A stretch of DNA of 34,436 nt from Solirubrobacteraceae bacterium (GTDB lineage Bacteria > Actinomycetota > Thermoleophilia > Solirubrobacterales > Solirubrobacteraceae): positions 1-34,436 of the forward strand of contig JAJCYD010000032.1 of the NCBI GenBank assembly GCA_029263125.1. The letters are read 5' to 3'. Of the stretch, positions 1,798 to 32,149 are shown piece by piece. The position numbers were made by a program, and so were the translations under genes. A model generated the notes under the pieces. It saw nothing but the letters and a program-made list of their open reading frames with translations, had not been told where the DNA came from and made no database searches. The first letter of the stretch is position 1; each line of letters starts with the position of its first letter.

Positions 1798-4700
1798 ATG
1801 CGCGATTACCGATCAGCGATCCGCACCCATGTTGTCCTCTTTGATGGTGGCATGGGCGCAACGCTCGAGCAGTTCGACCTCTCGCTGCAGGACGACTACA
1901 AGCTCCCCGGCCGAGCCCACGAAGCACTGGTGCTCAACCGCCCGGACGTCATCGAGGGCGTCCACACGTCGTTCGTCGACGCCGGCGCGGACGTCGTGCA
2001 GACCGACACCTTCCAGGCCAGCCGGCTGAAGCTCGACGAGTGGGGCCTTGGCGACGAGACGATCGAGATCAACCGCCGCGGCGCGCAGATCGCCCGCAAG
2101 GCCGCGGGCGAGAAGCGCTTCGTCGCCGGATCTGTCGGGCCCACCGGCTTCCTCCCGGCATCCGACGATCCGACGCTCGGCGACATCGCCTTCCGCACGC
2201 TCGCCGACACGTTCTCCGAGCAGTGCTTCGGCCTCATCGAGGGCGGCGTCGACGTGATCCTCGTCGAGACCGCGCAGGACATCCTCGAGGTCAAGGCGGC
2301 GATCTTCGGCGCGCGCGCGGCAATGAAGCTCGCCGACCGCGAGGTCCCGATCCAGGTGCAGGTCTCGCTGCTGCCCAACGGCGGCAAGATGCTGCTGGGC
2401 ACCGACATCTCCGCGGTGCTGACGACGCTGGAAGCGCTCAACGTCGACGCGATCGGCCTGAACTGCTCGACCGGTCCCGAGGACATGCGCGACGCGATCC
2501 GCTTCCTCGGAGAGTTCTCGCCGCTTCCCGTGTCGTGCATCCCCAACGCCGGGATCCCGATCCAGGGCCACGACGGCGAGACGATCTTCCCGGAAGGCCC
2601 GGAGCAGTTCGCCAAGACGCTGATCGACTTCGTCACCCGCTACGACGTCAGCATCGTCGGCGGCTGCTGCGGCTCGACCCCGGACCACATCCGGATGGTC
2701 GCCGAGGGCATCAAGGGCAGGCGCTGCAAGCCGCGGCCCGCGCCGCGCGAGGCGCATGTCAGCTCGATGATCGCCGCGACGACGCTCGTGCAAGAGCCGC
2801 GACCGACGATGGTCGGTGAGCGCGTCAACTCCCAGGGCTCGCGCAAAGCCAAGGAGATGCTGCTCGCCGACGACTACGACGGCCTGGGTCATATCGCCTA
2901 GGACCAGGTCGCCGGCGGCGCCCACGTGATCGACCTCTGCGTCGCGCTCGTCGAGCGCGACGACGAGGGCGAGCAGATGCGCCGCGTCGCCGAGCGCGTG
3001 TCGCTCGCACAGCCGGCGCCGATCCAGGTCGACTCGACCGAGCCCGACGTCATCGAGTCCGCGCTCGAGCAGATCCCCGGCCGCGCGATCGTCAACTCGA
3101 TCAACCTCGAGGCCGGGCGCGACAAGCTCGACCGCGTCGTGCCGATCGCGCTGGCCCACGGCGCCTGCCTGATCGCCCTGACGATCGACGAGGTCGGGAT
3201 GGCGAAGACCGCGCAGCGCAAGCTCGAGATCGCGCGCCGCCTGAAGGAGCTGTGCTGCGACGAGCACGGCCTGGATCCCGAGGCCCTGATCTTCGACGTG
3301 CTGACCTTCACGCTGACCACCGGCGACGAGGAGTGGCGCCCGTCGGCGGTCGAGACGATCGAGGGCATCCGCCTCGTCAAGGAGCACATCCCCCACGTCA
3401 AGACGTCGCTCGGCGTCTCCAACGTCTCCTTCGGCGTCGGCCCGCGGGCGCGCGCGGTCCTGAACTCCGTCTTCCTGCACCACTGCGTCGAGGCCGGCCT
3501 GGACCTCGCGATGGTCAACCCGAACCACATCACGCCCTACTCGGAGATCGGCGCGGCCGAGCGCACGCTCGCCGACGACCTCGTCTTCAACCGCCGCGAG
3601 GACGCGCTGGAGCTGTTCATCGCGCACTTCGAGTCCCAGTCTGAGGAGGCCGAGGACGAGAAGGCCGACCCGACCGCGGGCATGGAGCCCGAGGCGGCGC
3701 TGCACTTCCACATCCTGCGCCGCAAGAAGGAGGGCGTGGAGGACTGGGTCGACACCTGCGTCGAGAAGATCGGCGCCGTGCCGACGCTCAACGAGGTGCT
3801 GCTGCCCGCGATGAAGGAGGTCGGCGACAAGTTCGGCGCGGGCGAGCTGATCCTGCCCTTCGTGCTGCAGTCGGCGACGGTCATGAAGCGCGCCGTCGCG
3901 CAGCTGGAGAACTACCTCGACAAGGTCGAGGGCTACACGAAGGGCACCGTCGTGCTCGCGACGGTCTTTGGCGACGTGCACGACATCGGCAAGTCGCTGG
4001 TCAACACGATCCTCACGAACAACGGCTACACGGTCGTCGACCTCGGCAAGCAGGTGCCGATCTCCGCGATCCTCGAAGCCGCCCAAGAGCGCAACGCCAC
4101 CGCGATCGGCCTCAGCGCGCTGCTGGTCTCGACCTCCAAGCAGATGCCGCTGTGCATCGAGGAGCTGCACGAGAAGGGCCTGGACTACCCGGTGCTGATC
4201 GGCGGGGCGGCGATCAACCGCGACTTCGGCCTGCGCGCGCTGTATCCCAAGGGCAAGGCCGCCGACGACCTCTACGAGCCCGGCGTCTTCTACTGCAAGG
4301 ACGCCTTCGAGGGCCTCAACAAGATGGACCAGCTGATCGAGGAGGAGGGCCGCGCCAAGCTGCTGGAGAAGACGCGCGCGGCCGCCCTGCACTTCCGCCT
4401 CTATGGCAAGGACCCGCCGCCGCTGATCACCGACGACGACAGCGTGCGCTCGGCCGCGCGCACCGACGTGCCGATCCCGACGCCGCCGTTCTGGGGCGCG
4501 CGCGAGATCGACGTCCCGCTGGACGAGATCTTCCCCCACCTCGACACCCATGTGCTGTTCAAGCTGCACTGGGGCGGGCGCGGCGTGAAGGGCGAGGCGT
4601 GGCGCAAGCTCATCGACGGCGACTTCCAGCCGCGCCTGGAGCGGATGTGGCGTGAGCAGGACTACCTCGGCCCGCGTGCCCGCCTGGGCTACTTCCCCTG

Positions 4701-5352
4701 CTACAGCGAGGGCAACGAGGTCGTCGTGCTGGATCCCGACGACAACGTCACCGTGCTCGAGCGCCTCGTCTTCCCGCGCCAGCCCGAGCATCACCGCATC
4801 TGCCTGGCGGACTTCTTTCGCCCGCGCGACGCCGACGAGCTCGACGTCGTCGCGCTGCAGGCCGTGACCGTCGGGCCGCGCGTGACCGAGGTCATCGAGG
4901 CACTGGAGGCCGAGGGCGAGTATGCCGAGCAGCTCTTCACCCACGGCCTCGGCGTGCAGTCGGCGGAGGGAACCGCGGAGTGGCTGCACTCACGCGTGCG
5001 CTCAGAGCTCGGGATCGGCCCCACCGAGGGCCGGCGCTACTCGTGGGGCTACCCCGCCTGCCCCGAGCAGTCAGAGCACGAGAAGATCTATCGCCTGCTC
5101 GACGCGCCCTCGATCGGCCTGACGCTGACCGGCGGCTACGCCGTCGAGCCCGAGCAGTCGACCCTGGCGATCATCGCCCACCACCCCCAAGCCGTCTACT
5201 TCGGCATGAAGTCCGGCTTCCTGCCCAAGGACCGCGCCCCCGACGACCTCGTCGCCGGCTCCGATCGCGACGCCACCAAGAAGCGCGATCACGACCCCCG
5301 CGACGGCCCGCCCGAGGACGAGCCGGCGCTGGCGGCCGACGCGCGGGCGTAG
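1798..5352 (+). pseudogene. metH: Cobalamin-dependent methionine synthase, interrupted by in-frame TAG
   Basis: MetH transfers a methyl group from methyltetrahydrofolate to homocysteine through cob(I)alamin. Ignoring one stop, the frame is 1184 codons, normal for the family. Domain order: homocysteine-binding barrel with zinc cysteines C223 (GLNCSTG) and C290/C291 (GGCCGST); pterin-binding barrel from about 325 (VGERVNSQGSRK); cobalamin cap (LPAMKEVGDKFGAGE); cobalamin domain with GDVHDIGKS, His728 being the lower ligand; and reactivation domain ending with GYPACPEQ. Codon 368 is TAG (2899-2901), inside the pterin barrel just before DQVAGGAHVIDLCVAL. The same frame then continues intact. The pieces are 1798-2901 (367 aa) and at most 2926-5352 (808 aa from GTG). 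The break is not at a domain boundary and there is no clear ribosome-binding site for the second part. Either a recent nonsense mutation or a base error. TAG is an ordinary stop in neighbouring genes. Confidence 0.92.
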
Positions 5353-5583: not shown

Positions 5584-5829
5584 ATGGCGATGATCCCTCA
5601 GAAGGAGCTGCGCAACAACATCGGTGAGGTCCTGCGGCGCGCGCAATCCGGCGAACAGCTGACGATCACCGTCTCCGGGCGCCCGGTTGCCCAGCTCGGC
5701 CCGATCCGATCTCGCCAGTGGGTCGACACCGGCGAGCTCCGGGCGCTGTGGGAGCTGCCCGCCGATGAGACGCTTGAGCGCGACCTCGAGCGGTTCGGCA
5801 CCGACCTTCGGGATCCGTGGTCGGCGTGA
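5584..5829 (+). CDS. vapB: Phd/YefM-family antitoxin (VapB-type)
   Basis: An 81-aa protein. The N-terminal half (IPQKELRNNIGEVLRRAQ, then EQLTITVSGRPVAQLGPI) is the Phd/YefM fold, which dimerises and binds the operator. The acidic C-terminal tail, with ALWELPADETLERDLERFG, would wrap the toxin and block its active site. The gene overlaps the next by GTGA if the toxin starts at 5826, or is 2 bases from it at ATG 5832, so the two are translationally coupled. It follows metH without functional relation, as is typical of mobile or accessory toxin-antitoxin modules. Cognate pairing is inferred from adjacency. Confidence 0.87.
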   Translation: MAMIPQKELRNNIGEVLRRAQSGEQLTITVSGRPVAQLGPIRSRQWVDTGELRALWELPADETLERDLERFGTDLRDPWSA

Positions 5830-5831
5830 CC

Positions 5832-6224
5832 ATGCGGGCCGTCCTCGACACCTCTGTGCTGATCGGCGGCCAGGCCATCCCCGCGGGCGTGCAGTCCGCG
5901 ATCAGCACGGTCTCGATCGCCGAGCTGCATTTCGGCCTGCTCGTCGCCGCAGACGACGAGGCCCGCGCCGAACGCGCGACACGCCTCGGCCTGATCGAGG
6001 CGCGCTTTCCCGATCCCCTGCCGATCGACGACCGGGTGGCACGCGAGTGGGGCCGCTTGCAGGCCGCCGTCGCCAATCGGGGCGGGCAACCGCGCCGCCG
6101 CGCCGCCGACCTGGCCATCGCCGCCACGGCCATCGTCCACGATGCCGTCCTGTTGACGCACAACCTCAAGGACCTCGCGATCATCGACGACCTCCTCGAC
6201 GCGCGCACGCCGGCGGGCGGGTGA
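5832..6224 (+). CDS. vapC: PIN-domain ribonuclease toxin (VapC)
   Basis: A 130-aa single PIN domain, the usual VapC length. The metal-binding acidic residues are all present: Asp6 in AVLDTSVLI, Glu31 in SIAELHFG, Asp93 in AADLAIAATAI and the C-terminal HNLKDL with Asp114. VapC toxins cut specific RNAs (often tRNA or the sarcin-ricin loop) when the antitoxin is degraded. The real target cannot be read from sequence. ATG 5832 is preferred because homologues begin with 'MRAVLDTS'. GTG 5826, overlapping the vapB stop, is an alternative adding two residues. The toxin looks intact. Confidence 0.88.
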   Translation: MRAVLDTSVLIGGQAIPAGVQSAISTVSIAELHFGLLVAADDEARAERATRLGLIEARFPDPLPIDDRVAREWGRLQAAVANRGGQPRRRAADLAIAATAIVHDAVLLTHNLKDLAIIDDLLDARTPAGG

Positions 6225-15652: not shown

Positions 15653-17977
15653 CTATGCGGTCTCTCGCGCTCCCTGGCGCGAGAAGCCCTGCGCCGGCGA
15701 CAGCTCGACCGGCGAGGCGTGCATCGCGCGCAGTCGCACGTCGCGCCACGACAGCCCCTCCTTGACCAGGGCCGGCGCGCCCATGACGATCGCCGTGGCG
15801 ATCTCGACGGACTGCAGGATGATCCCGTAGGCCAGCGCGTCGGCCGCGCCGACGCCGTAGGCCGTCAGGACGGCGACGCACGCCGCCTGAAAGACCCCGA
15901 GGTTCGACGGCGTCGCCGGTAGCACGGCCGTGACGTTGACCGCGAACAGGACGGCCGCGGCGGCGCCGATCCCCGCGCGCTCGTCGAGGCCGAGCGCGAC
16001 GAGCAGCACGTAGCAGGCGATCCACTGCACCACCCAGGCCGAAAGCTGCGCGAACGCCGCGATGGCGCCCAGCCGCGGACGGGAGAAGACCCGCAGACCG
16101 GCCCGCACCTGCACGAGCGCGGCGCGTGCCCGCGTGACGAACGTCGCCACTCGCCGGTAGCGCGACGGCTTGCCTGAGCGCAGCAGCGCCGGAGCCGCGA
16201 ACATCAGCACGACGATCACCAGCGGCGCGATCGCGACTGCCAGCAGCGCGGTCTGGTGGGTGAACAGGTCGACGGTGGAGAACATCGTGATCCCCAGGAC
16301 GACGAGCGCCAGCACGTTGAGCAGCGTCTGCGAGACGATCGTGCCGAGGACGACAGGCAGGTGCAGGCGAGCGTTGCCGATACGCCGCGCGACGACGAAC
16401 GCGCGCGCCGGCTCGCCCAGGCGGGCGGGAAGCGTCGCGGACATCAGCACGCCGATGAACGTCCCCTGCAGGGCGTCGACAAGCCGGACGCGTGCCCGCG
16501 GCAGCGCGGCGCGCAGGATCGCGTGCCACGCGACGCCGCGGATCGCCATCGAGCAGCACATCAGGGCGAGCGCGACGAGGATCCATGTCGGCGCCGCCGC
16601 GAGCAGCGCATCGCCGATCCGCTCGGGCCCGATCCGATGAAGCCCGAACGCCGCCAGCAGCGCTGCGAGCAGTCCGGCCACGCCGACCGCGGCGCGGCGA
16701 ACGCGGCGCGCGACCGGTCGCGGCGCGGAGTCCTCGCCCATGTCGGGCGGTGGCTCGAGGGTCGGCAGGCGCTCGGCGGGAACCCGGACGCCGTCGGCGG
16801 GCGTGCCCGCAAGGCGCACGAGCGTGCGCGATCCGGCGAGCGCCGGCATCGCGATCGCGTCGCGGTAGGCGCCGAGCACCTCGCCGGCCACGCGCGGCCA
16901 CGCGTAGCGCTGCGCCGAGGCCGCCGCGGCGCGAGCCAGCTCCTGACGGCGCTCGCGGTCGAGGGCGAGATCGCGCAGCACCTCGGCCAGCGCCGTGGGA
17001 TCGCCGCGCGGCACGAGCACGCCGTCGACACCGTCGGTGACCACGTCGCGGTAGCCGGCGATGTCCGACGCGACGACCGGTGTCCCGGCGGCGAAGGCCT
17101 CCGTCAGGACCATGCCGAAGCTCTCGCCGCCCAGCGACGGCGCGCACAGCATGTCGGCCTCCGCGAGCACGCGGCGCTTGTCGGCATCGCTGCACTTGCC
17201 CAGCGCGACGACGTCACGGTCGTCGATCATCAGCGGAGCGATCTCCTGCGGACTGACGCCGACGATGTCGAGGCGCACCGGCAGGTGCTCGCGCAGCGCC
17301 TCGAACGCCCGCAGCAGCACCGGCAGCCCCTTGCGCTCGACCGACTGGCCGATGAAGGCGATCCGCAGCTGATCGCCGCCGTCGCGCGGCGCTCGCACGA
17401 CCGGCGCGTCGGGCACGTCGACGCCGTTGGGCACGATCCGGTAGCTGCCACCGTAGAAGCGCCGCCCCGTCCAGGCCGCCGCCTCGGAGACGGCGATCCG
17501 CACGTGCAGCCGGTTCAAGCGCCGGCGTGCGCCCAGGACGTTGGCGACGTTGTTGGAGAACGTGTTCTCCGAGTAGCAGTGGAAGGTGCCCACGAGCGGC
17601 GCGTCGATCGAGCACAGCGCGTCCCAGCACAACGCCAGCGCGACCGGCTCGTGCAGATGGACGACGTCGAAGCCGCCTGCCCGCAGCTCACGACGCATCC
17701 TGCTGACGCCGCCGGCGGTGTGGGCGACGTTGGAGACCGCGCCGTTGGAGGGAAACCCGACGGTGCGACCCATCGGGATGAGCCACTCGGGCAGCTCGCG
17801 GTGTCCCGGCCGGGCGCCGCGGTGCAGGCGTGCGGACGTGCGATCGTCAGGATCGACGGGAGAGAGCACGCGCACATCGTGTCCCGCCGCCAGGTAGTGC
17901 TCGGCGAGCGCTTCGATATGACGCGTCACGCCCCCCGGGTACGTCCATGAATACGGAGACACCAGCGCGATGCGCAT
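15653..17977 (-). CDS. PimA-like GT4 glycosyltransferase fused to LPG-synthase/flippase-type membrane domain
   Basis: A 774-aa fusion. Residues 1 to about 385 are a GT-B glycosyltransferase of the GT4 family: RIALVSPYSWTYPGGVTRH at the start, VPNGVDVP in the middle, and GGESFGMVLTEAFAAGTPVV, which binds the sugar nucleotide. The LPEWLIPMGRTVGFPSNGAV segment resembles PimA-type phosphatidylinositol mannosyltransferases. After a charged linker, about residues 430-760 are a polytopic domain of the LPG_synthase_TM/YbhN family, with GVLMSATLPARLGEPARAFV and ATPSNLGVFQAA. The fusion suggests sugar transfer to a lipid coupled to its membrane handling. Donor, acceptor and lipid are unknown. ATG 17977 shares one base with the upstream stop (TGATG), so it is translationally coupled. 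Longer upstream reading is a shadow. Confidence 0.9.
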   Translation of the reverse strand: MRIALVSPYSWTYPGGVTRHIEALAEHYLAAGHDVRVLSPVDPDDRTSARLHRGARPGHRELPEWLIPMGRTVGFPSNGAVSNVAHTAGGVSRMRRELRAGGFDVVHLHEPVALALCWDALCSIDAPLVGTFHCYSENTFSNNVANVLGARRRLNRLHVRIAVSEAAAWTGRRFYGGSYRIVPNGVDVPDAPVVRAPRDGGDQLRIAFIGQSVERKGLPVLLRAFEALREHLPVRLDIVGVSPQEIAPLMIDDRDVVALGKCSDADKRRVLAEADMLCAPSLGGESFGMVLTEAFAAGTPVVASDIAGYRDVVTDGVDGVLVPRGDPTALAEVLRDLALDRERRQELARAAAASAQRYAWPRVAGEVLGAYRDAIAMPALAGSRTLVRLAGTPADGVRVPAERLPTLEPPPDMGEDSAPRPVARRVRRAAVGVAGLLAALLAAFGLHRIGPERIGDALLAAAPTWILVALALMCCSMAIRGVAWHAILRAALPRARVRLVDALQGTFIGVLMSATLPARLGEPARAFVVARRIGNARLHLPVVLGTIVSQTLLNVLALVVLGITMFSTVDLFTHQTALLAVAIAPLVIVVLMFAAPALLRSGKPSRYRRVATFVTRARAALVQVRAGLRVFSRPRLGAIAAFAQLSAWVVQWIACYVLLVALGLDERAGIGAAAAVLFAVNVTAVLPATPSNLGVFQAACVAVLTAYGVGAADALAYGIILQSVEIATAIVMGAPALVKEGLSWRDVRLRAMHASPVELSPAQGFSRQGARETA

Positions 17978-19992
17978 CAGGGCATCGTAGAGGCCTGCTC
18001 CCCGGACGGCGGTCCACCGCGCACATACGCCGTCACACACGCGAGCACGAAGACCCCGAAGACCAGCAGAATCGGGCCGGAGTCGTTGAACAGTGCCCCG
18101 ACGATCGCCGACGTCAGCCCGCCGAGCAGCGCGGCGCGCCAGACCGGCGAGCCGCGCAGCGGGGCGAAGACTCGCTCGCGATGGCGCGCGGCGTAGGCGA
18201 TCGACAGGATCGTGAGGACCGTCATGAGCGGCATCGCGCCGGTCATCAGCACGTTGAACGCAAGCGTGTAGCGGCGCTTGACGACGTCCCACAGCGCCTG
18301 CGGGCTGTCGGCCTGCAGGATCGTGCGCGTGAAGTGCCCGTCACCGCCGGTCACGAGATCCAGCGCGGCGAGGCCGGCGAGCGCCGCGACCGGCGTCAGC
18401 AGCGCGAGCACGATCACGCGCCGCGACGGCCTTCCCGGCAGCAGCAGGACGGCCATCGCCGAGATGCCGGCCCCGAAGGTGATGACCCCGCCGACGTCCG
18501 CGCCGAGTTGCCCGGCGCCGACGAACACCGACGCGACCAGTCCTGCGATCGCGACGATCGCCGCCGCGCGCCGTGAGCGGCCGGGGCCCGTCCCGAACGG
18601 CGCGGCCGGGCCCTCGAGATCACGGCGACGCATCAGCGCCGCGCCGAGCCCGACGACCAGCAGGATCACCAGCGTGGACTCGAGCTCGTTGCCCAGCCCG
18701 TAGAAGCGCGAGCCCGAGCGCGGGTTGACGCCCAGCAGCGAGCGGACGATCAGCTGAGATCCGAAGGCGAGATCCGTCCCGTAGGCGACCAACGCGACGG
18801 TCGCCGGCACGACGGGCGCTCGCGGCCAGCGGACGAAGCGGTCGCTGAGCGCGGCGAACACGAAGCACCCGCCGACGATCGTGACGACCTCCACGAGGCG
18901 TCCCGGCGCGAGCCAGCCGGTGAACAGCAGCATCGGCAGGACCCACAGCATCGCCAGCCCGCCGATCCGCAACCCCGCGCGCACGCCGCGGCGGTCTGAC
19001 AGCGCGCCGAGCGCGAGCACGAGCGCCGCCCAGGTGAACATCAGGGCATAGATCGTCGGCGTGCGGCGCCCGCTGACGACCCGCAGGCGGGCTTCCAGCG
19101 ACCGCAGCCCGGCCGCGTCGCGCGTGCCGTCGACGTGGATCGGCTGGCCCTTCGTCCCCTTGGGAACCGGCAGATCGAGCTCGCGCAGGATCGTGACCGG
19201 CAGGTCGATCGCCGCGACGATCCCGTCCAGGCGCGTGGTCTGCGAGGCGAGCATGCCCACCGCCCCGTCGCCGAGCACGGCGCCCGCCGGCAACAGCTGC
19301 GGGACCGACGCGCGCGGCGGCGTCTGCATGACGATCAGCAGGTCGTCGGGCCGGCGATCGCGCAGCAGCTCGTCGAGCACGGCGTCGCCCTTGTCGGCGG
19401 TCGGAAGGCCGGCGACGACGAAGCGATGGCGCTCCAAGAGCCGGCTGACCCGCTGGGCGAGCGTGGAGGCCGTGCCGAGCGACAGCGCGGCGATGTCGCC
19501 CTCGCGGTCGGCGGCGGCCACCGCCTCCAGGTTCCTGCGGCTGCGAACCCCGGCGAACGCCGCGCCGCCGGGAATCTGGCTTGCCAGCAGGCCTGGCCGG
19601 ATCTCGGCGAGCGCCGTCTCGGCGCGTCGCAACGCACGGCTCCAGCCGAAGATGAACGCGCCGCCGTCGCCTGCGGGCACGAGCTCGAGGTTCGGCGGGC
19701 TGCGGGGTGCGTAGACCGCCCGCGAGGTGCGAGATCCGGCGGAGATGTCGAGCATCGCCTGCTCGGGGGTGAAGCGTCCCTGCGTTGCGCTGACGAGGCC
19801 GATCGACAGCTGCGCTCGCACCTCGAGGCGATCGAGCACCGGTGCGGGGTTGCCGTCGCCGCCCGCGGGCAGGAAGGCGAGCACCGCCCGCGCCGGCCGG
19901 GCGTCGGCGGCCGGAGCCGCCGCCAAGCCGACGAGGATGAGCAGGATCGCGACCGCGGCGGCGAGCCGCGGCGCGTGAGCAGGAAGGGGCAT
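17977..19992 (-). CDS. Polytopic membrane protein with alkaline-phosphatase-like ectodomain
   Basis: A 671-aa protein. A signal/TM segment (8-29) is followed by an extracytoplasmic domain of about 280 residues and around ten TM helices from 313 to 655. The segment DDLLIVMQTPPRASVPQLLP, then GDGAVGMLASQTTRLDGIVA, then AIDLPVTILRELDLPVP near 215-278 recalls the end of alkaline-phosphatase/sulfatase-like domains in actinobacterial membrane proteins ('...DIAPTVLELLGVPVP'). I see no clear Asp/His metal cluster, so it may be degenerate. The TM part has SGSRFYGLGNELES, which looks conserved. TGATG coupling to the downstream glycosyltransferase/flippase fusion suggests a shared role in envelope glycolipid or polymer assembly. 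Exact function unknown. ATG 19992 follows a weak AGG. Confidence 0.85.
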   Translation of the reverse strand: MPLPAHAPRLAAAVAILLILVGLAAAPAADARPARAVLAFLPAGGDGNPAPVLDRLEVRAQLSIGLVSATQGRFTPEQAMLDISAGSRTSRAVYAPRSPPNLELVPAGDGGAFIFGWSRALRRAETALAEIRPGLLASQIPGGAAFAGVRSRRNLEAVAAADREGDIAALSLGTASTLAQRVSRLLERHRFVVAGLPTADKGDAVLDELLRDRRPDDLLIVMQTPPRASVPQLLPAGAVLGDGAVGMLASQTTRLDGIVAAIDLPVTILRELDLPVPKGTKGQPIHVDGTRDAAGLRSLEARLRVVSGRRTPTIYALMFTWAALVLALGALSDRRGVRAGLRIGGLAMLWVLPMLLFTGWLAPGRLVEVVTIVGGCFVFAALSDRFVRWPRAPVVPATVALVAYGTDLAFGSQLIVRSLLGVNPRSGSRFYGLGNELESTLVILLVVGLGAALMRRRDLEGPAAPFGTGPGRSRRAAAIVAIAGLVASVFVGAGQLGADVGGVITFGAGISAMAVLLLPGRPSRRVIVLALLTPVAALAGLAALDLVTGGDGHFTRTILQADSPQALWDVVKRRYTLAFNVLMTGAMPLMTVLTILSIAYAARHRERVFAPLRGSPVWRAALLGGLTSAIVGALFNDSGPILLVFGVFVLACVTAYVRGGPPSGEQASTMP

Positions 19993-25414: not shown

Positions 25415-25809
25415 TCGGGACTGTACGGCCCAGGTCTGTCGCGCCGGACGTCAGTCGATCGTTGCTCGACCTCATGCTGTCGCGGGCGGTCACGGGGAGC
25501 CGCCGACAACGCTCGTGGCGACCTCGGGCGGTTCCGCCCTGCCGGTGGCGGGCGGCATCGCAGCCGCCACCGCCTGACGCCAGCCCCCGAGAGCCGTGAT
25601 CGCACACCGATGCGCTGAACGCGCTCAGACGTTGGCGGTCGTCGCGCCGTGTCTCTGCGTCGATCATCGGCTCACCTCCTGCTCGGTGGATTCCACGGTG
25701 AACGTTGTACGCGCGAGCGCTGCCGCGCCGAACTGCGGATGCTGGCCGTTGTGGGTATCTACCATTCGCAGACGCCCGTTTGAGCAGATCGTGGGGACCG
25801 CCGCCCAGC
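25415..25809. other. Intergenic region with an unexplained perfect Shine-Dalgarno
   Basis: About 395 bases between the divergent channel and VWA-lipoprotein genes. No gene is convincing. On the minus strand AGGAGG (25680-25675) stands 7 bases before an ATG at 25667, an ideal initiation site. The frame starts MIDAETRRDDRQRLSAFSAS and then becomes Arg/Gly-rich and runs far into the channel gene in another frame, so only the first 30 or so residues look usable. It may be a leader peptide or a frameshifted small gene. The promoter of the channel operon should lie between here and 25415. Confidence 0.45.
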
Positions 25810-26625
25810 ATGAGAACCCGCCGCACCAGATTCGCCGTGCTCGGCGGGGTCGCCGCCCTCGCTCTCGTGGGCTGCGGTGGTGGCGGCGACGACGCGTGCG
25901 TCGCCGAGCCGGGGGCGGCTCCCGGTGCGGTGCAGGTCGACACCGGCTGTGCCGTCAACACGGTCGTCGCGGTCGACGCGACCGGAGCGATCGCCGATCG
26001 GACGCTCGCGCGCGACGTCAGCTCCACCGCGCTGCGCGCGGCTGAAAAGACGATCACGTCTGGCGGACACCTGAGGATGTTCGTCTTCGCCGGCGACGCA
26101 AACGCCGTCGAGGTCATCTACGACGACGACGTGCAGACTCTCAAGCAGTCCGACGAGACCCGCCGCGGACCGCAGGAGCAGGCGCTGCGCACTGCCCTCG
26201 CGACGACGCTCGACAGCGCGTTGGGCGTCACCGGCGACGATCCGGCGCTGCGCGGTCGCGTGCGCGAGCTGACCCGCGGTGGCACGTCGGACATCGCGCG
26301 CGCCGTGCGCAACGGCCTGCGGTCGCTCACATCCCGGTCGGGCGCCAAGGCGCTGACGCTCGTCTCCGACGGCGTGCAGGCCAGCGACCAGCTCAAGCTC
26401 TCCAGCGCCGTCGATTCCGGCGGCGATCCGGCGGAGCTCGGCGCGCGGCTCGGCGAGCTGATCGGCAGCGCGGGCGGCGTGGATGTCCTGCAGGTCGCGG
26501 GGCTCGGGCGCCTGCCCGATCGCGTCAACCAGAGCGCGCGACGCACCGACGCGCTCGTCGAGATCTGGAAGGCCGCGTGCGAGCGATCGCGCGCGACGCG
26601 CTGCGCGACCACGACCGAGCTGTGA
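25810..26625 (+). CDS. VWA-like lipoprotein
   Basis: A 271-aa exported lipoprotein. The basic n-region and LGGVAALALVGC lipobox (Cys22) anchor it outside the membrane. The mature part looks like a von Willebrand factor A fold: VVAVDATGAI (53-61) supplies a MIDAS-like D-x-T-G in place of D-x-S-x-S, RGGTSDIARAV (157-167) the TxxxA element, and KALTLVSDGVQ (180-190) the third acidic element. Four further cysteines (30, 47, 257, 265) may form disulfides. ATG 25810 was chosen for the signal peptide; the upstream in-frame extension is implausible. It is first of three close genes on this strand. A VWA domain usually means metal-dependent protein binding. The partner is unknown. Confidence 0.76.
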   Translation: MRTRRTRFAVLGGVAALALVGCGGGGDDACVAEPGAAPGAVQVDTGCAVNTVVAVDATGAIADRTLARDVSSTALRAAEKTITSGGHLRMFVFAGDANAVEVIYDDDVQTLKQSDETRRGPQEQALRTALATTLDSALGVTGDDPALRGRVRELTRGGTSDIARAVRNGLRSLTSRSGAKALTLVSDGVQASDQLKLSSAVDSGGDPAELGARLGELIGSAGGVDVLQVAGLGRLPDRVNQSARRTDALVEIWKAACERSRATRCATTTEL

Positions 26626-26644
26626 TGCACGCCAGGAGCACCGG

Positions 26645-27994
26645 ATGACCGAACCCGACGAGCACTCCCCCACCCTGCCGCCGCCACTGCTGCCGATTCC
26701 GTCGATCGGTGAGCCTGCGCAGGCGCCGGAGGAGTCCGAGCGTCCGATGCCGGACGCCACGACCGTCGCGCCGGACATCGCCGATGGTGCGCGCACCGGC
26801 GGCGCGCACCCGCGCGACGACGCCGACCGCGTGCGCGGCGAGCTGGTCGCCGAGAGCATCGCCCAGCACGCCGACCATGCGATCGGCGCACGCCTCGGGC
26901 CGCTGATGGAGAGCGCCGTCCGCGTCCGCGCGCTCGACGACGACCTCATCAAGGCCAGCGCGGCCGCCGAGGAGATCCGCACGCCGGCCGGCGAGGTCGC
27001 GCCCGCGCCCACGGCGGATACCCGGCGGGGTCGCCTGGCGGCCCGCATCGGTACCGGCGGCGGCCTGCTCGCGCTGTTCTTCGCCGTCGGCATCGCCGAG
27101 GCGTTGTTCGCCTATGACGGCTTCCGCGAGCTCGCCCGCTTCCGCGCCAGCGACCCGACGCTGCTGCGCGAAGGGGCACCCGCCCTATCGGCGATCGTCA
27201 TCGCGCTGCTGATCGCGATCGGTCAGAAGGCCGTGGGCAAGAACCTGCGCCTCGCGCACGCGCGCGATCCGCGGCCGGCCGACGACGGCGGGCGGCGACT
27301 GCTGGAACGCGACCTCTCCAGGGCGGCCCGCTATGCGGTGGCGCTGGCGATCATCGTGACCGGCCTGGGTCTGTGGTATGGCGTTCAGAGCGCCCGCACG
27401 ACTGCCAACAACGCGGCGACGGCACGCGAGCAGGCCAACCAGGCCGCCGGCGCGCGCGGCGCGGCCGCGCAGCAACTCGCCGACCAACCGACGACCGTCG
27501 GCAGCGCGCCGGGCGTCTACTTCCTCGTCTCGGCGGCGGTCTTCCTGCTCGGAATCGGTGTCGCCTACCTGCTCGTCGATCCGTCGCGCGATGCCCGCGA
27601 GCGCCGTCGCCGCCGCGATGCCGCCACGTTGGAGCATCGAGACCGAATCCGAACGCGGCTGGCCGGCGAGGTCGGCGCGCTCGTCGCCCAGCGCGCCGAG
27701 ATCGCGACCACCGTGGCCAATGCCAAGCGCCAGATGCGCCAGGAGGCCGTCCTGCACCCGGAGGTCGCCTTCTTGCAGCGTGCCGACGAGTTCCCGCACC
27801 TCTACGGCACGTGGAAGCCCCGGGAGAGCACGCGCCTCCCGCTGGCCCCGGAGGTCGGCGACGCCCACCACGCCCAGGCCGCCCTTGCCCAGGACAGCGG
27901 ACTCACCGTTCCCGACAAGCTCGCCGATGTCGACGCGCTGATCGCCGACCTGCTGGGCCGCAACCTCGCGGCGCCGAAGAGCCCGCCGCGGTGA
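26645..27994 (+). CDS. Four-TM protein of unknown function in VWA operon
   Basis: A 449-aa membrane protein that I do not recognise. Residues 1-130 are Pro/Ala/acid-rich and probably cytoplasmic. TM helices lie at about 138-157, 178-196, 230-247 and 290-312. Between TM3 and TM4 is a short Ala/Gln-rich external stretch (TTANNAATAREQANQAAGAR, about 252-271), predicted helical. The C-terminal 135 residues start with an Arg-rich run (DARERRRRRDAATLEHRDRI) and look like a coiled coil, then EAVLHPEVAFLQRADEFPHL. AGGAG sits 6 bases before ATG 26645. The gene overlaps the next by GTGA, so the products are made together and may form one complex across the membrane. No catalytic motif seen. Confidence 0.8.
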   Translation: MTEPDEHSPTLPPPLLPIPSIGEPAQAPEESERPMPDATTVAPDIADGARTGGAHPRDDADRVRGELVAESIAQHADHAIGARLGPLMESAVRVRALDDDLIKASAAAEEIRTPAGEVAPAPTADTRRGRLAARIGTGGGLLALFFAVGIAEALFAYDGFRELARFRASDPTLLREGAPALSAIVIALLIAIGQKAVGKNLRLAHARDPRPADDGGRRLLERDLSRAARYAVALAIIVTGLGLWYGVQSARTTANNAATAREQANQAAGARGAAAQQLADQPTTVGSAPGVYFLVSAAVFLLGIGVAYLLVDPSRDARERRRRRDAATLEHRDRIRTRLAGEVGALVAQRAEIATTVANAKRQMRQEAVLHPEVAFLQRADEFPHLYGTWKPRESTRLPLAPEVGDAHHAQAALAQDSGLTVPDKLADVDALIADLLGRNLAAPKSPPR

Positions 27995-29013
27995 GCGGAC
28001 CGCGCACGGCGCCCCAGCGACGATCGAGCACCGCTCGGCGCTTGCCGGGCGGCGCACGGAGCCCTGGGCCCGCGACCCCGGCGGCTCGGCGTGCACGCCT
28101 CGACATGCCCACCGGCGCCGCGCACGTGCCCGATGCCCAATCGGACCGGCAGGCCACGGCGGCCCATCAGCCCGCCGCGCCGCGCGAGCTGACGGGCCTC
28201 GCGCTCCTGCTCGACCAGCTCGACGCGCTGCTGCGCGACCCGACGATCGCCCGCGCGCTGTCGGCATTCGCCGCGAAGCTCTCGGCGGGCATGCGCGGCG
28301 TGCTCGCGGCGATCACCGACGCCGCGCGACGGCTGCCGAGCATCCGATTGCGGCTGTCACGCCGGCTGCTGCTCGGGCTGCTCGCGGTGACGCTGCCGGT
28401 CGCCCTGCTCGCGCTCCTGAGCTCCGCGGACGACGAAAGATCGGCGGACGGGACGAGCGCGCCCGCAGCCGGCGCTCCCGCCGCGGCGGGAGCGTCCCCC
28501 GGCGGCGGGGTCGCGATGCCGCGGCTTGCGGGTGCGCCCGAGAAGGTGCAACCCGTCTCCGTGGCCCTCGTCCTGGATGGCACGTACGACGGCCCGCGAC
28601 GCGCCCGCGAGCTGCGCGCGCTCGGAACATGGCTGGCACAGAACCACGCGGCGGGCACGCGCGTGTCGGTGATCGACCCGGCCGCCGGCCGCGCCAGCGC
28701 ACCCCTGCGCCCGACCGATCTCGCGAGCGCGCGCCTCACGCGTCAACCGTCGAGCACATCGGCGGCTATCCGCTCTGCCTTCGGCAATGCGGACGCCGGC
28801 CGGCGCCTGCTCGTGACGGTGGGAAGCAGCGTGCCCGCCGGCACCAGCTCGGCGCTGCGTATCACCACCCGGCGCGGCGCCACCGCCGGCGCGGCGCGCT
28901 CATCGGGCGGCGGGAACTCGCGCACCACGATCGACGATCGTCGGCCGGACGCGCTCGCGGCCAGCGTGGCCCGCGGCATCATGGCCGTCTCGGGCCAGAC
29001 CGAGCGACCCTGA
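27991..29013 (+). CDS. Single-TM protein with extracytoplasmic VWA-like domain
   Basis: A 340-aa protein starting at GTG 27991, overlapping the previous stop. Residues 1-120 are basic and Ala/Pro-rich with an amphipathic stretch (LTGLALLLDQLDALLRDPTI). One TM is at about 126-145. An Ala/Gly/Pro/Ser linker leads to an outer domain from about 185. VQPVSVALVLDGTYDGPRRA resembles strand 1 of a VWA or related Rossmann-like fold (Asp196-Gly-Thr), with RELRALGTWLA as the following helix and GRRLLVTVGSS as a later strand. The MIDAS is incomplete, so metal binding is doubtful. With the VWA lipoprotein two genes upstream, it suggests two outer VWA-like parts around the four-TM protein. Function unknown. 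Confidence 0.76.
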   Translation: MSGPRTAPQRRSSTARRLPGGARSPGPATPAARRARLDMPTGAAHVPDAQSDRQATAAHQPAAPRELTGLALLLDQLDALLRDPTIARALSAFAAKLSAGMRGVLAAITDAARRLPSIRLRLSRRLLLGLLAVTLPVALLALLSSADDERSADGTSAPAAGAPAAAGASPGGGVAMPRLAGAPEKVQPVSVALVLDGTYDGPRRARELRALGTWLAQNHAAGTRVSVIDPAAGRASAPLRPTDLASARLTRQPSSTSAAIRSAFGNADAGRRLLVTVGSSVPAGTSSALRITTRRGATAGAARSSGGGNSRTTIDDRRPDALAASVARGIMAVSGQTERP

Positions 29014-29044: not shown

Positions 29045-29068
29045 GCGGGGCGCCCGAAGGCGCCCCGC
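29045..29068. terminator. Strong bidirectional terminator hairpin
   Basis: A perfect 10-bp stem (GCGGGGCGCC with GGCGCCCCGC) closed by a CGAA tetraloop, 31 bases after the VWA operon. It is the strongest hairpin noticed in an intergenic region here. The T-run is missing but GC-rich stems suffice in many actinobacteria. It may also end the converging small gene at 29143. Confidence 0.75.
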
Positions 29069-30799: not shown

Positions 30800-32149
30800 A
30801 TGCGCCCATCCGGACTCGCGCCGCTGCTGATCGTCGCATGCGTCGCGCTGTCATGGCCGGTTGAGGCCCGGGCTGCGCCCCTCCAGCTCTCCTTCAGCGG
30901 GTCGCCACAGGATCTCGACACCGACGCGGTCGCGCCCCTGCTCTCCCGCGACGAGCGATCGGGTCGCGTCCTGGCCGTCTGGAGCGTGCGTGTGGGCACT
31001 CGCGATCTCACCACCACCATCGCACGCGTGCTGGACGCGCGCGGCCGGCCAATCGGTGCGGCGTTCAAGCTGCGGGGCTTGACGGTGTTCGGCGGCGGCA
31101 ACCGCCCGGCCACGCTGATGGCGATCGCCGCTCGTCCCCGAGCCGGTGGCTGGATCGTGGCGGCGGCCGCCCGCAGCGCGGGCACCAGGAGCCGTGTGGT
31201 CTCGGCGGTCGTGACGCCGGGTGGGAACGTCGGACGCCGACGTGCCCTCTCCGCTGCGACGGCGCCACGCACGGAGATCCGAAGCCTTGGCCTGGCCGTC
31301 GACCCGCGCAGCGGGCGCGCCATCGTGAGCTGGTTTGTCAATCGCCACTCCAAGGCCGATCGAGCGACGCGGGGTAGCCGCCGTGCGGTGCTCGCGCGCG
31401 GCATCGACTCCAACGGACGCCCCAGAACGCCCGTCCGAGCCCTGTACACAGCTCCCAGAGACTCAACCTTGATCGAGGGAGAGGTCGCGATCGGCTTCGT
31501 GCCCAAGACCCGAAGCTGGCTGGCGGTGTGGACGCACGACGTCAGGTTCGCGCGCAAGCGCGTCATCAACATCTACGCGCGGCGCGTCCTGGGTTCTGTG
31601 AGACCGCGAGGTCCCGTCCGCGCCGCCGGGAGAGCGGCATCCGGCGATGAGATGTTCGGCGCTCCCAGCGTGATCGCCGGCACCGCCGCGAGTGGTGCGC
31701 TCGCGCTGTTCAGACACGAGACGCTTGATGGCAACCGCCTGCTGCTGGCGCGCCTGAATGCCAACGGCGTCGTCCGCGGCCGTGCGAGGACCGTGGGCGC
31801 CCGCGGAGATGGGGAGCCGACCTCGCCCAGCGCCGTCGTCGACTCCTCCAGCGGCGGCCTCCTGGTCTACGGGCAGGCCTGCAGCGCGGTTGGGCACGGG
31901 GGTTGCCGGCAGTTCACCCCCATCATTGGACAGCGGCTCAGCGCATCGGGTGCGCCCTTCGGCGCTTCTAGGGTGATACGCCGGCAGGCCGCAGGCCCAG
32001 GCGTCGCGCTGGCGCGCTCGGAAACGGGGTCCTACCTGCTCGCGTGGCAGGCGGCGGCAGTGTCGGGGGCGGCGTACTACAGCGACAACGCCATGTTCAC
32101 GATCTTCCCGAACAAGGCCGAGATCTTCATCGAGGAGCTGACGCCCTGA
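30800..32149 (+). CDS. Secreted repeat-containing protein, beta-propeller-like
   Basis: A 449-aa exported protein. The signal peptide is LAPLLIVACVALSWPVEARA, ending near residue 25. The rest consists of recurring beta-strand patterns: 'vlAVWsvr', ARVLDARGRPIG, GWIVAAAAR, AIVSWFVNR, SWLAVWTHD, ALALFRHE, GGLLVYGQ, SYLLAWQA, each followed by a turn and a strand such as 'ARxLxAxGxxxG'. That suggests a multi-bladed propeller of the type found in long secreted actinobacterial proteins. No catalytic residues are seen. TGAGGAGG sits 2 bases before ATG 30800. The gene lies 90 bases after the sigma gene and its 3' end overlaps the converging MocR gene by 23 bp. Ligand and role unknown. Confidence 0.76.
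   Translation: MRPSGLAPLLIVACVALSWPVEARAAPLQLSFSGSPQDLDTDAVAPLLSRDERSGRVLAVWSVRVGTRDLTTTIARVLDARGRPIGAAFKLRGLTVFGGGNRPATLMAIAARPRAGGWIVAAAARSAGTRSRVVSAVVTPGGNVGRRRALSAATAPRTEIRSLGLAVDPRSGRAIVSWFVNRHSKADRATRGSRRAVLARGIDSNGRPRTPVRALYTAPRDSTLIEGEVAIGFVPKTRSWLAVWTHDVRFARKRVINIYARRVLGSVRPRGPVRAAGRAASGDEMFGAPSVIAGTAASGALALFRHETLDGNRLLLARLNANGVVRGRARTVGARGDGEPTSPSAVVDSSSGGLLVYGQACSAVGHGGCRQFTPIIGQRLSASGAPFGASRVIRRQAAGPGVALARSETGSYLLAWQAAAVSGAAYYSDNAMFTIFPNKAEIFIEELTP

What the first reader, a model, noticed from the sequence alone, without database searches (positions are those of the whole stretch)
25810..29013. Three-gene VWA membrane module, a possible undescribed system
A VWA-type lipoprotein with MIDAS-like residues, a four-TM protein with long cytoplasmic coiled coil, and a single-TM protein with an outer VWA-like fold are joined by short gaps and a GTGA overlap. 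They end at a perfect terminator. Two outer VWA parts of different anchoring around one multi-TM core fits an assembled transmembrane machine (sensor, adhesion or envelope-chaperone). None of the three belongs to a family I recognise.
Basis: partly seen in the sequence, partly recalled or inferred. Interest (0 to 1): 0.68.

Follow-up and report, generated by a model that had tools for sequence, protein, structure and literature searches.

The report
Genus-specific three-gene VWA envelope module
Three adjacent genes for surface and membrane proteins, two with a von Willebrand-type binding fold, always travel together in one little-known soil actinobacterial genus; they probably form an outward-facing binding or sensing complex, but what it does is not known.

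Summary
The three genes are real (25810-26625, 26645-27994, 27991-29013, + strand) and behave as one unit. Five of seven genomes of the genus (Solirubrobacteraceae) carry all three, once, in the same order, with the same GTGA overlap and the same box (ATCTACCAT) before gene 1. Two genomes have none; one of these is about 98% complete and sits inside a clade that has them, so joint loss is likely. No convincing relative was found elsewhere in the order (all three genes), in class and phylum samples (gene 2), or among plasmids, phages and viral contigs (genes 1 or 2). Neighbouring genes differ in four contexts. The 'perfect terminator' is a 10-bp hairpin without a T run, not conserved. The vWA-tubulin, MoxR-VWA and ExbB/MotA-type readings were tested and not met. 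Best reading: an envelope complex presenting two VWA-type binding domains around a membrane core. Function remains inference.

The parts
25757..25765 (+). Conserved promoter-like box ATCTACCAT (holds TACCAT, a TAnnnT -10-type hexamer) 44 nt upstream of the gene 1 start
   Evidence: Invariant in all five module loci while most of the upstream DNA around it is not. ATCTACCATY occurs 0-3 times per genome in the genus; the other sites are mostly inside coding sequence.
25810..26625 (+). Gene 1: secreted lipoprotein (lipobox Cys22) with a VWA-type domain, incomplete MIDAS D56-x-T58 / T159 / D187, and four further invariant Cys
26645..27994 (+). Gene 2: multi-TM protein (predicted TMs about 138-158, 179-197, 229-249, 290-312), N-terminal helix, cytoplasmic coiled-coil-like helix 313-370, invariant Glu152 and Asp158 in TM1
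27991..29013 (+). Gene 3: N-in single-TM protein (TM about 124-144) with a C-terminal outer alpha/beta domain (about 183-337) of probable VWA fold and D-x-[ST]-Y-D motif; starts in a GTGA overlap with gene 2
29045..29068 (+). Hairpin with perfect 10-bp stem and CGAA loop, about 30 nt after the gene 3 stop; no T run, not conserved

Best explanation
A vertically inherited, genus-specific three-gene operon encodes one cell-envelope assembly. Gene 2 is the membrane core, with cytoplasmic helical arms. Gene 3 crosses the membrane once and presents a VWA-like domain outside. Gene 1 is a lipid-anchored VWA protein outside. The VWA-type domains probably bind each other, or a ligand in the wall or medium, and the 4-TM/coiled-coil protein anchors the assembly or passes the binding state inward, so it works as a surface-binding or sensing complex. 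Shown: gene structure, purifying selection, strict co-occurrence and joint absence, lipobox, a VWA signal for gene 1, TM segments, and a VWA-like model for gene 3. Inferred: physical complex, ligand binding, direction of signalling.
For: All three genes are present together in 5 of 7 genus genomes and absent together in 2. G006 (about 98% complete) lacks all three although its sigma factor is 98.4% identical to those of G002/G003, which have them. Order and GTGA overlap are identical in all five. Within the flanks compared, only the trio is shared among four genomic contexts. The promoter-like box is conserved. dN < dS throughout. Gene trees all recover G002+G003, as does the sigma-factor marker; placement of the others varies. 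The conserved parts are TM1, outer loop 1, TM2 and TM4 of gene 2, the VWA of gene 1 and the C-terminal helix of gene 3, while the linkers vary. VWA signal.
Against: No interaction data. The gene 2 model is unreliable (pLDDT 41) and the gene 3 fold match is below the safe Z. The two VWA-type domains show no detectable sequence relation to each other. Neither has a complete MIDAS, so metal-dependent binding is uncertain. Operonic linkage does not by itself prove a complex.
Confidence: 0.5

Rival explanations
1. The trio is a satellite or remnant of the vWA / tubulin-like (FtsZl1) / GTPase membrane-remodelling or conflict systems, whose operons also contain secreted vWA proteins and lineage-specific TM proteins.
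For: Published operons pair vWA proteins, some secreted or TM-anchored, with lineage-specific membrane proteins (PMC2875224; PMC7159879).
Against: No Tubulin_2 gene in any of the seven genus genomes. The one full Tubulin_2 operon read in the family (G024) has a large vWA protein and a large two-TM protein, unlike this trio. No P-loop gene lies in the trio.
Confidence: 0.05
2. A motor/stator-like assembly of the ExbB-ExbD / TolQ-TolR / MotA-MotB type: multi-TM core, single-TM partner with an outer domain, plus a lipoprotein.
For: Same gross layout, and an invariant acidic residue inside TM1 of gene 2 (E152).
Against: The single-TM partner has no acidic residue in its TM, only R124/R125 at its inner edge; the Asp that defines ExbD/TolR/MotB (own knowledge) is absent. 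No Pfam match of that kind.
Confidence: 0.08
3. A MoxR/VWA-type chaperone or conflict system with the AAA+ partner encoded elsewhere.
For: VWA domains often work with MoxR ATPases (PMC7159879); gene 1's best Pfam match is VWA_CoxE.
Against: No AAA+ MoxR gene among the immediate neighbours in five genomes. The gene 1 product is predicted to be outside the cell, where a cytoplasmic ATPase cannot reach it. No PADLOC match.
Confidence: 0.05
4. Three co-transcribed but separately acting lineage-specific envelope proteins of no common mechanism.
For: No interaction evidence; young, fast-evolving genes are common in such genomes; gene 3 has about twice the dN of genes 1 and 2.
Against: Strict joint presence and absence, conserved translational overlap and conserved order against changing surroundings.
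Confidence: 0.3

Closest known systems
Bacterial surface VWA proteins, e.g. the adhesin CglB of Myxococcus (PMC13104615)
   Same: A VWA domain displayed outside; CglB binds the substrate and is recruited to a trans-envelope complex.
   Different: No sequence relation shown; different envelope (diderm) and partners; no complete MIDAS here; no motor genes beside the trio.
vWA / FtsZ-like 1 (Tubulin_2) / GTPase systems (PMC2875224; PMC7159879)
   Same: Operons with vWA proteins and lineage-specific TM proteins.
   Different: No tubulin in the genus and no GTPase in the trio.
MoxR-VWA / BatA-type operons
   Same: VWA proteins with membrane anchors.
   Different: No MoxR neighbour and no Bat-type match.
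ExbB-ExbD / TolQ-TolR / MotA-MotB
   Same: Multi-TM plus single-TM partner with an outer domain.
   Different: No TM aspartate in the single-TM protein; VWA-like outer domain; four TM predicted in the core.

Membership tests
VWA domain (gene 1) | Sequence match to a VWA family model | tested here: inconclusive
   All five members match VWA_CoxE (best E 4e-4), three match VWA_2 (best 0.0051); P0001's VWA_CoxE score (15.7) is below the curated cut-off (26.4).
VWA domain (gene 1) | Aspartates at the ends of strands 1 and 4 | tested here: met
   D56 and D187 invariant in five sequences, assigned by motif.
VWA domain (gene 1) | Full MIDAS DxSxS...T...D | tested here: not met
   D-A-T-G-(A/P): second Ser replaced; T/S159 and D187 kept.
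Bacterial lipoprotein (gene 1) | Lipobox L-x-(G/A/S)-C after an N-terminal hydrophobic segment | tested here: met
   L19-x-(G/S/A)-C22 with invariant Leu and Cys.
VWA domain (gene 3) | VWA fold | tested here: inconclusive
   Top structural matches are integrin beta I-like / VWA domains, Z 7.6, rmsd 4.2, 125 aligned, model range 186-337; KaiB/thioredoxin-like rows at 5.6 and below; Foldseek alone gives nothing significant.
VWA domain (gene 3) | Full MIDAS | tested here: not met
   D196-x-(T/S)198-Y-D200 and T256 kept; Gly278 near where the strand-4 Asp is expected.
vWA / FtsZl1 (Tubulin_2) system | Tubulin-like gene | tested here: not met
   PF13809 absent from all seven genus genomes; found in 2 of 232 genomes of the order.
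MoxR-VWA system | Adjacent MoxR AAA+ gene | tested here: not met
   Immediate neighbours in five genomes are other families; MoxR genes elsewhere in the genomes were not searched.
ExbBD / TolQR / MotAB | Conserved Asp in the TM of the single-TM partner | tested here: not met
   No acidic residue in the gene 3 TM in any member.
Known anti-phage defence system | Match to a PADLOC model | tested here: not met
   No match for any of the three at E up to 10.

The most novel reading that the evidence does not exclude
A previously undescribed transmembrane surface-binding or sensing machine, invented within one genus of Solirubrobacteraceae, in which a lipid-anchored VWA protein and a membrane-anchored VWA protein pair outside the cell, much as integrin subunits pair, on a four-TM core that carries the signal inward.
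Probability: 0.15. Interest if true: 0.7.

Novelty: new variant of a known kind. Interest (0 to 1): 0.38.

Why it matters
It is a clean case of a lineage-specific operon whose parts persist and disappear as a unit and that carries its own promoter-like box. If the complex is real, it would be a simple bacterial envelope assembly with two extracytoplasmic VWA-type domains of different anchoring and no ATPase, testable with three genes.

Tried and rejected
Tubulin_2 association: absent in the genus, and the G024 operon is unlike the trio. Phage, plasmid and viral-contig relatives: none. Weak profile hits outside the genus are short stretches, mostly signal-peptide or TM regions; the one fetched and read, L032, lies in an ORF that looks like a ROK-type kinase (own reading). 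ATCTACCAT as a regulon motif: only 0-3 sites per genome, mostly inside genes. Homology between the two VWA-type domains: none detectable, though the profiles are shallow. PDB sequence matches: none meaningful. The gene 2 model was too poor for a fold search. Literature on a VWA module in Solirubrobacter: none in the library searched.

Full report
What is there. The window is one contig (C32) of a 3.75-Mb genome whose relatives are recorded as Solirubrobacteraceae. Three genes on the + strand lie at 25810-26625, 26645-27994 and 27991-29013. The gap between the first two is 19 nt; the last two overlap by GTGA. GC3 exceeds GC2 for the ORFs of genes 1 and 2, and dN is below dS for all three genes in all pairs of five genomes, so they are genes under selection.

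Co-occurrence. Profiles of the three proteins find full-length relatives in five of seven genomes of the genus (G000 to G004), single copy, and in none of the other genomes of the order (232 searched), nor, for gene 2, in samples of 399 genomes of the class and 396 of the phylum. Plasmids (gene 2), phages (gene 1) and viral contigs (genes 1 and 2) gave nothing. A scan of 85,000 species genomes with gene 2 found only the same four relatives; this scan reaches close relatives only. Gene order and the GTGA overlap are the same in all five. G005 and G006 lack all three; G005 is only about 77% complete, so its absence says little. G006 is about 98% complete, and its sigma factor is 98.4% identical to those of G002 and G003, which carry the trio, so loss of all three as a unit is the likely history.

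Context. Flanking genes differ between the window, G001, G004 and the G002/G003 pair; within the compared flanks only the trio is shared. Immediate neighbours are ordinary: a TrkA-type channel (next to a low-molecular-weight phosphatase) and a sigma-70 factor in the window; enoyl-CoA hydratase, SDR, ABC, NUDIX, ATP-grasp and release-factor-like genes elsewhere. Window gene order is poorly kept in these genomes in general, so the changing context need not mean mobility. The trees of the trio recover the G002+G003 pair seen with the sigma factor; other nodes vary between genes. This fits vertical descent but is not a strong test.

Regulation. ATCTACCAT, 44 nt before the start of gene 1 in the window, is the one block kept in all five upstream regions. 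It contains TACCAT, a -10-type hexamer; no matching -35 is found by consensus. With the next base Y it occurs 0-3 times per genome, elsewhere mostly inside genes, so it looks like the module's own promoter core rather than a regulon site; one further site in the window's genome lies upstream of a secreted-protein ORF (L082).

Gene 1. A signal peptide with an invariant lipobox Leu and Cys, then a VWA-type domain: all five members match VWA_CoxE and three match VWA_2, weakly. D56, T58, T/S159 and D187 form most of a MIDAS; the second Ser is Ala or Pro. Four further Cys are invariant (30, 47, 257, 265) and could form disulfides (inference).

Gene 2. Four hydrophobic segments with positive residues on the predicted inner sides; one (229-249) is weak and missed by a hydropathy scan at 1.6. 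Predicted helices 56-112 and 313-370 are cytoplasmic if the topology is right. The membrane segments and outer loop 1 are the best-kept parts, with invariant Glu152 and Asp158 in TM1. The structure model is poor, and no family matches the window protein below E 1.

Gene 3. Poorly conserved N-terminal region, one TM, then an outer domain with the order strand-helix-strand-...-strand-strand-strand-helix. Structural comparison ranks integrin beta I-like and other VWA domains first (Z 7.6, rmsd 4.2, 125 residues), above KaiB/thioredoxin-like rows, but under the level at which a match is safe; Foldseek alone is not significant. D196-x-(S/T)-Y-D200 and T256 are kept; the strand-4 Asp is missing.

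Interpretation. Anatomy and strict co-inheritance point to one envelope assembly with two outer VWA-type domains around a multi-TM core. That it binds a ligand or senses something is inference from what VWA domains usually do. The described vWA-tubulin-GTPase systems (PMC2875224, PMC7159879) were the closest published kind; their tubulin is absent from the genus. The ExbB/MotA-type motor reading fails on the missing TM acid in gene 3. CglB (PMC13104615) is a functional analogue at most.

Verdict. A real, coherent, genus-restricted module, not described in the sources searched; interesting mainly as a compact testable unit. Its function is not established.

Noticed in passing
window 1798-5352 (+): A cobalamin-dependent methionine synthase (MetH) gene is divided by an in-frame TAG at 2899-2901: homocysteine methyltransferase part 1798-2901, pterin/B12 part from 2926 in the same frame. 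Assembly error, pseudogene or something else was not examined.
   Followed up: partly
window 5584-6224 (+): Phd/YefM-type antitoxin followed by an overlapping PIN-domain ORF: a VapBC-like toxin-antitoxin pair.
   Followed up: no
window 26645-27994: Invariant Glu152 and Asp158 within TM1 of gene 2 in all five genomes.
   Followed up: partly
L018 7884-9425: The G002 version of gene 2 carries an extra proline/glutamate-rich stretch between TM2 and TM3, absent from the other four.
   Followed up: no
window 30800-32149 (+) and 17977-19992 (-): Two ORFs with apparent signal peptides and no Pfam match.
   Followed up: no
L086 4430-13816 (-): A vWA / Tubulin_2 / two-TM-protein gene cluster in another genus of the family (G024), one of only two genomes of the order with Tubulin_2.
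   Followed up: partly
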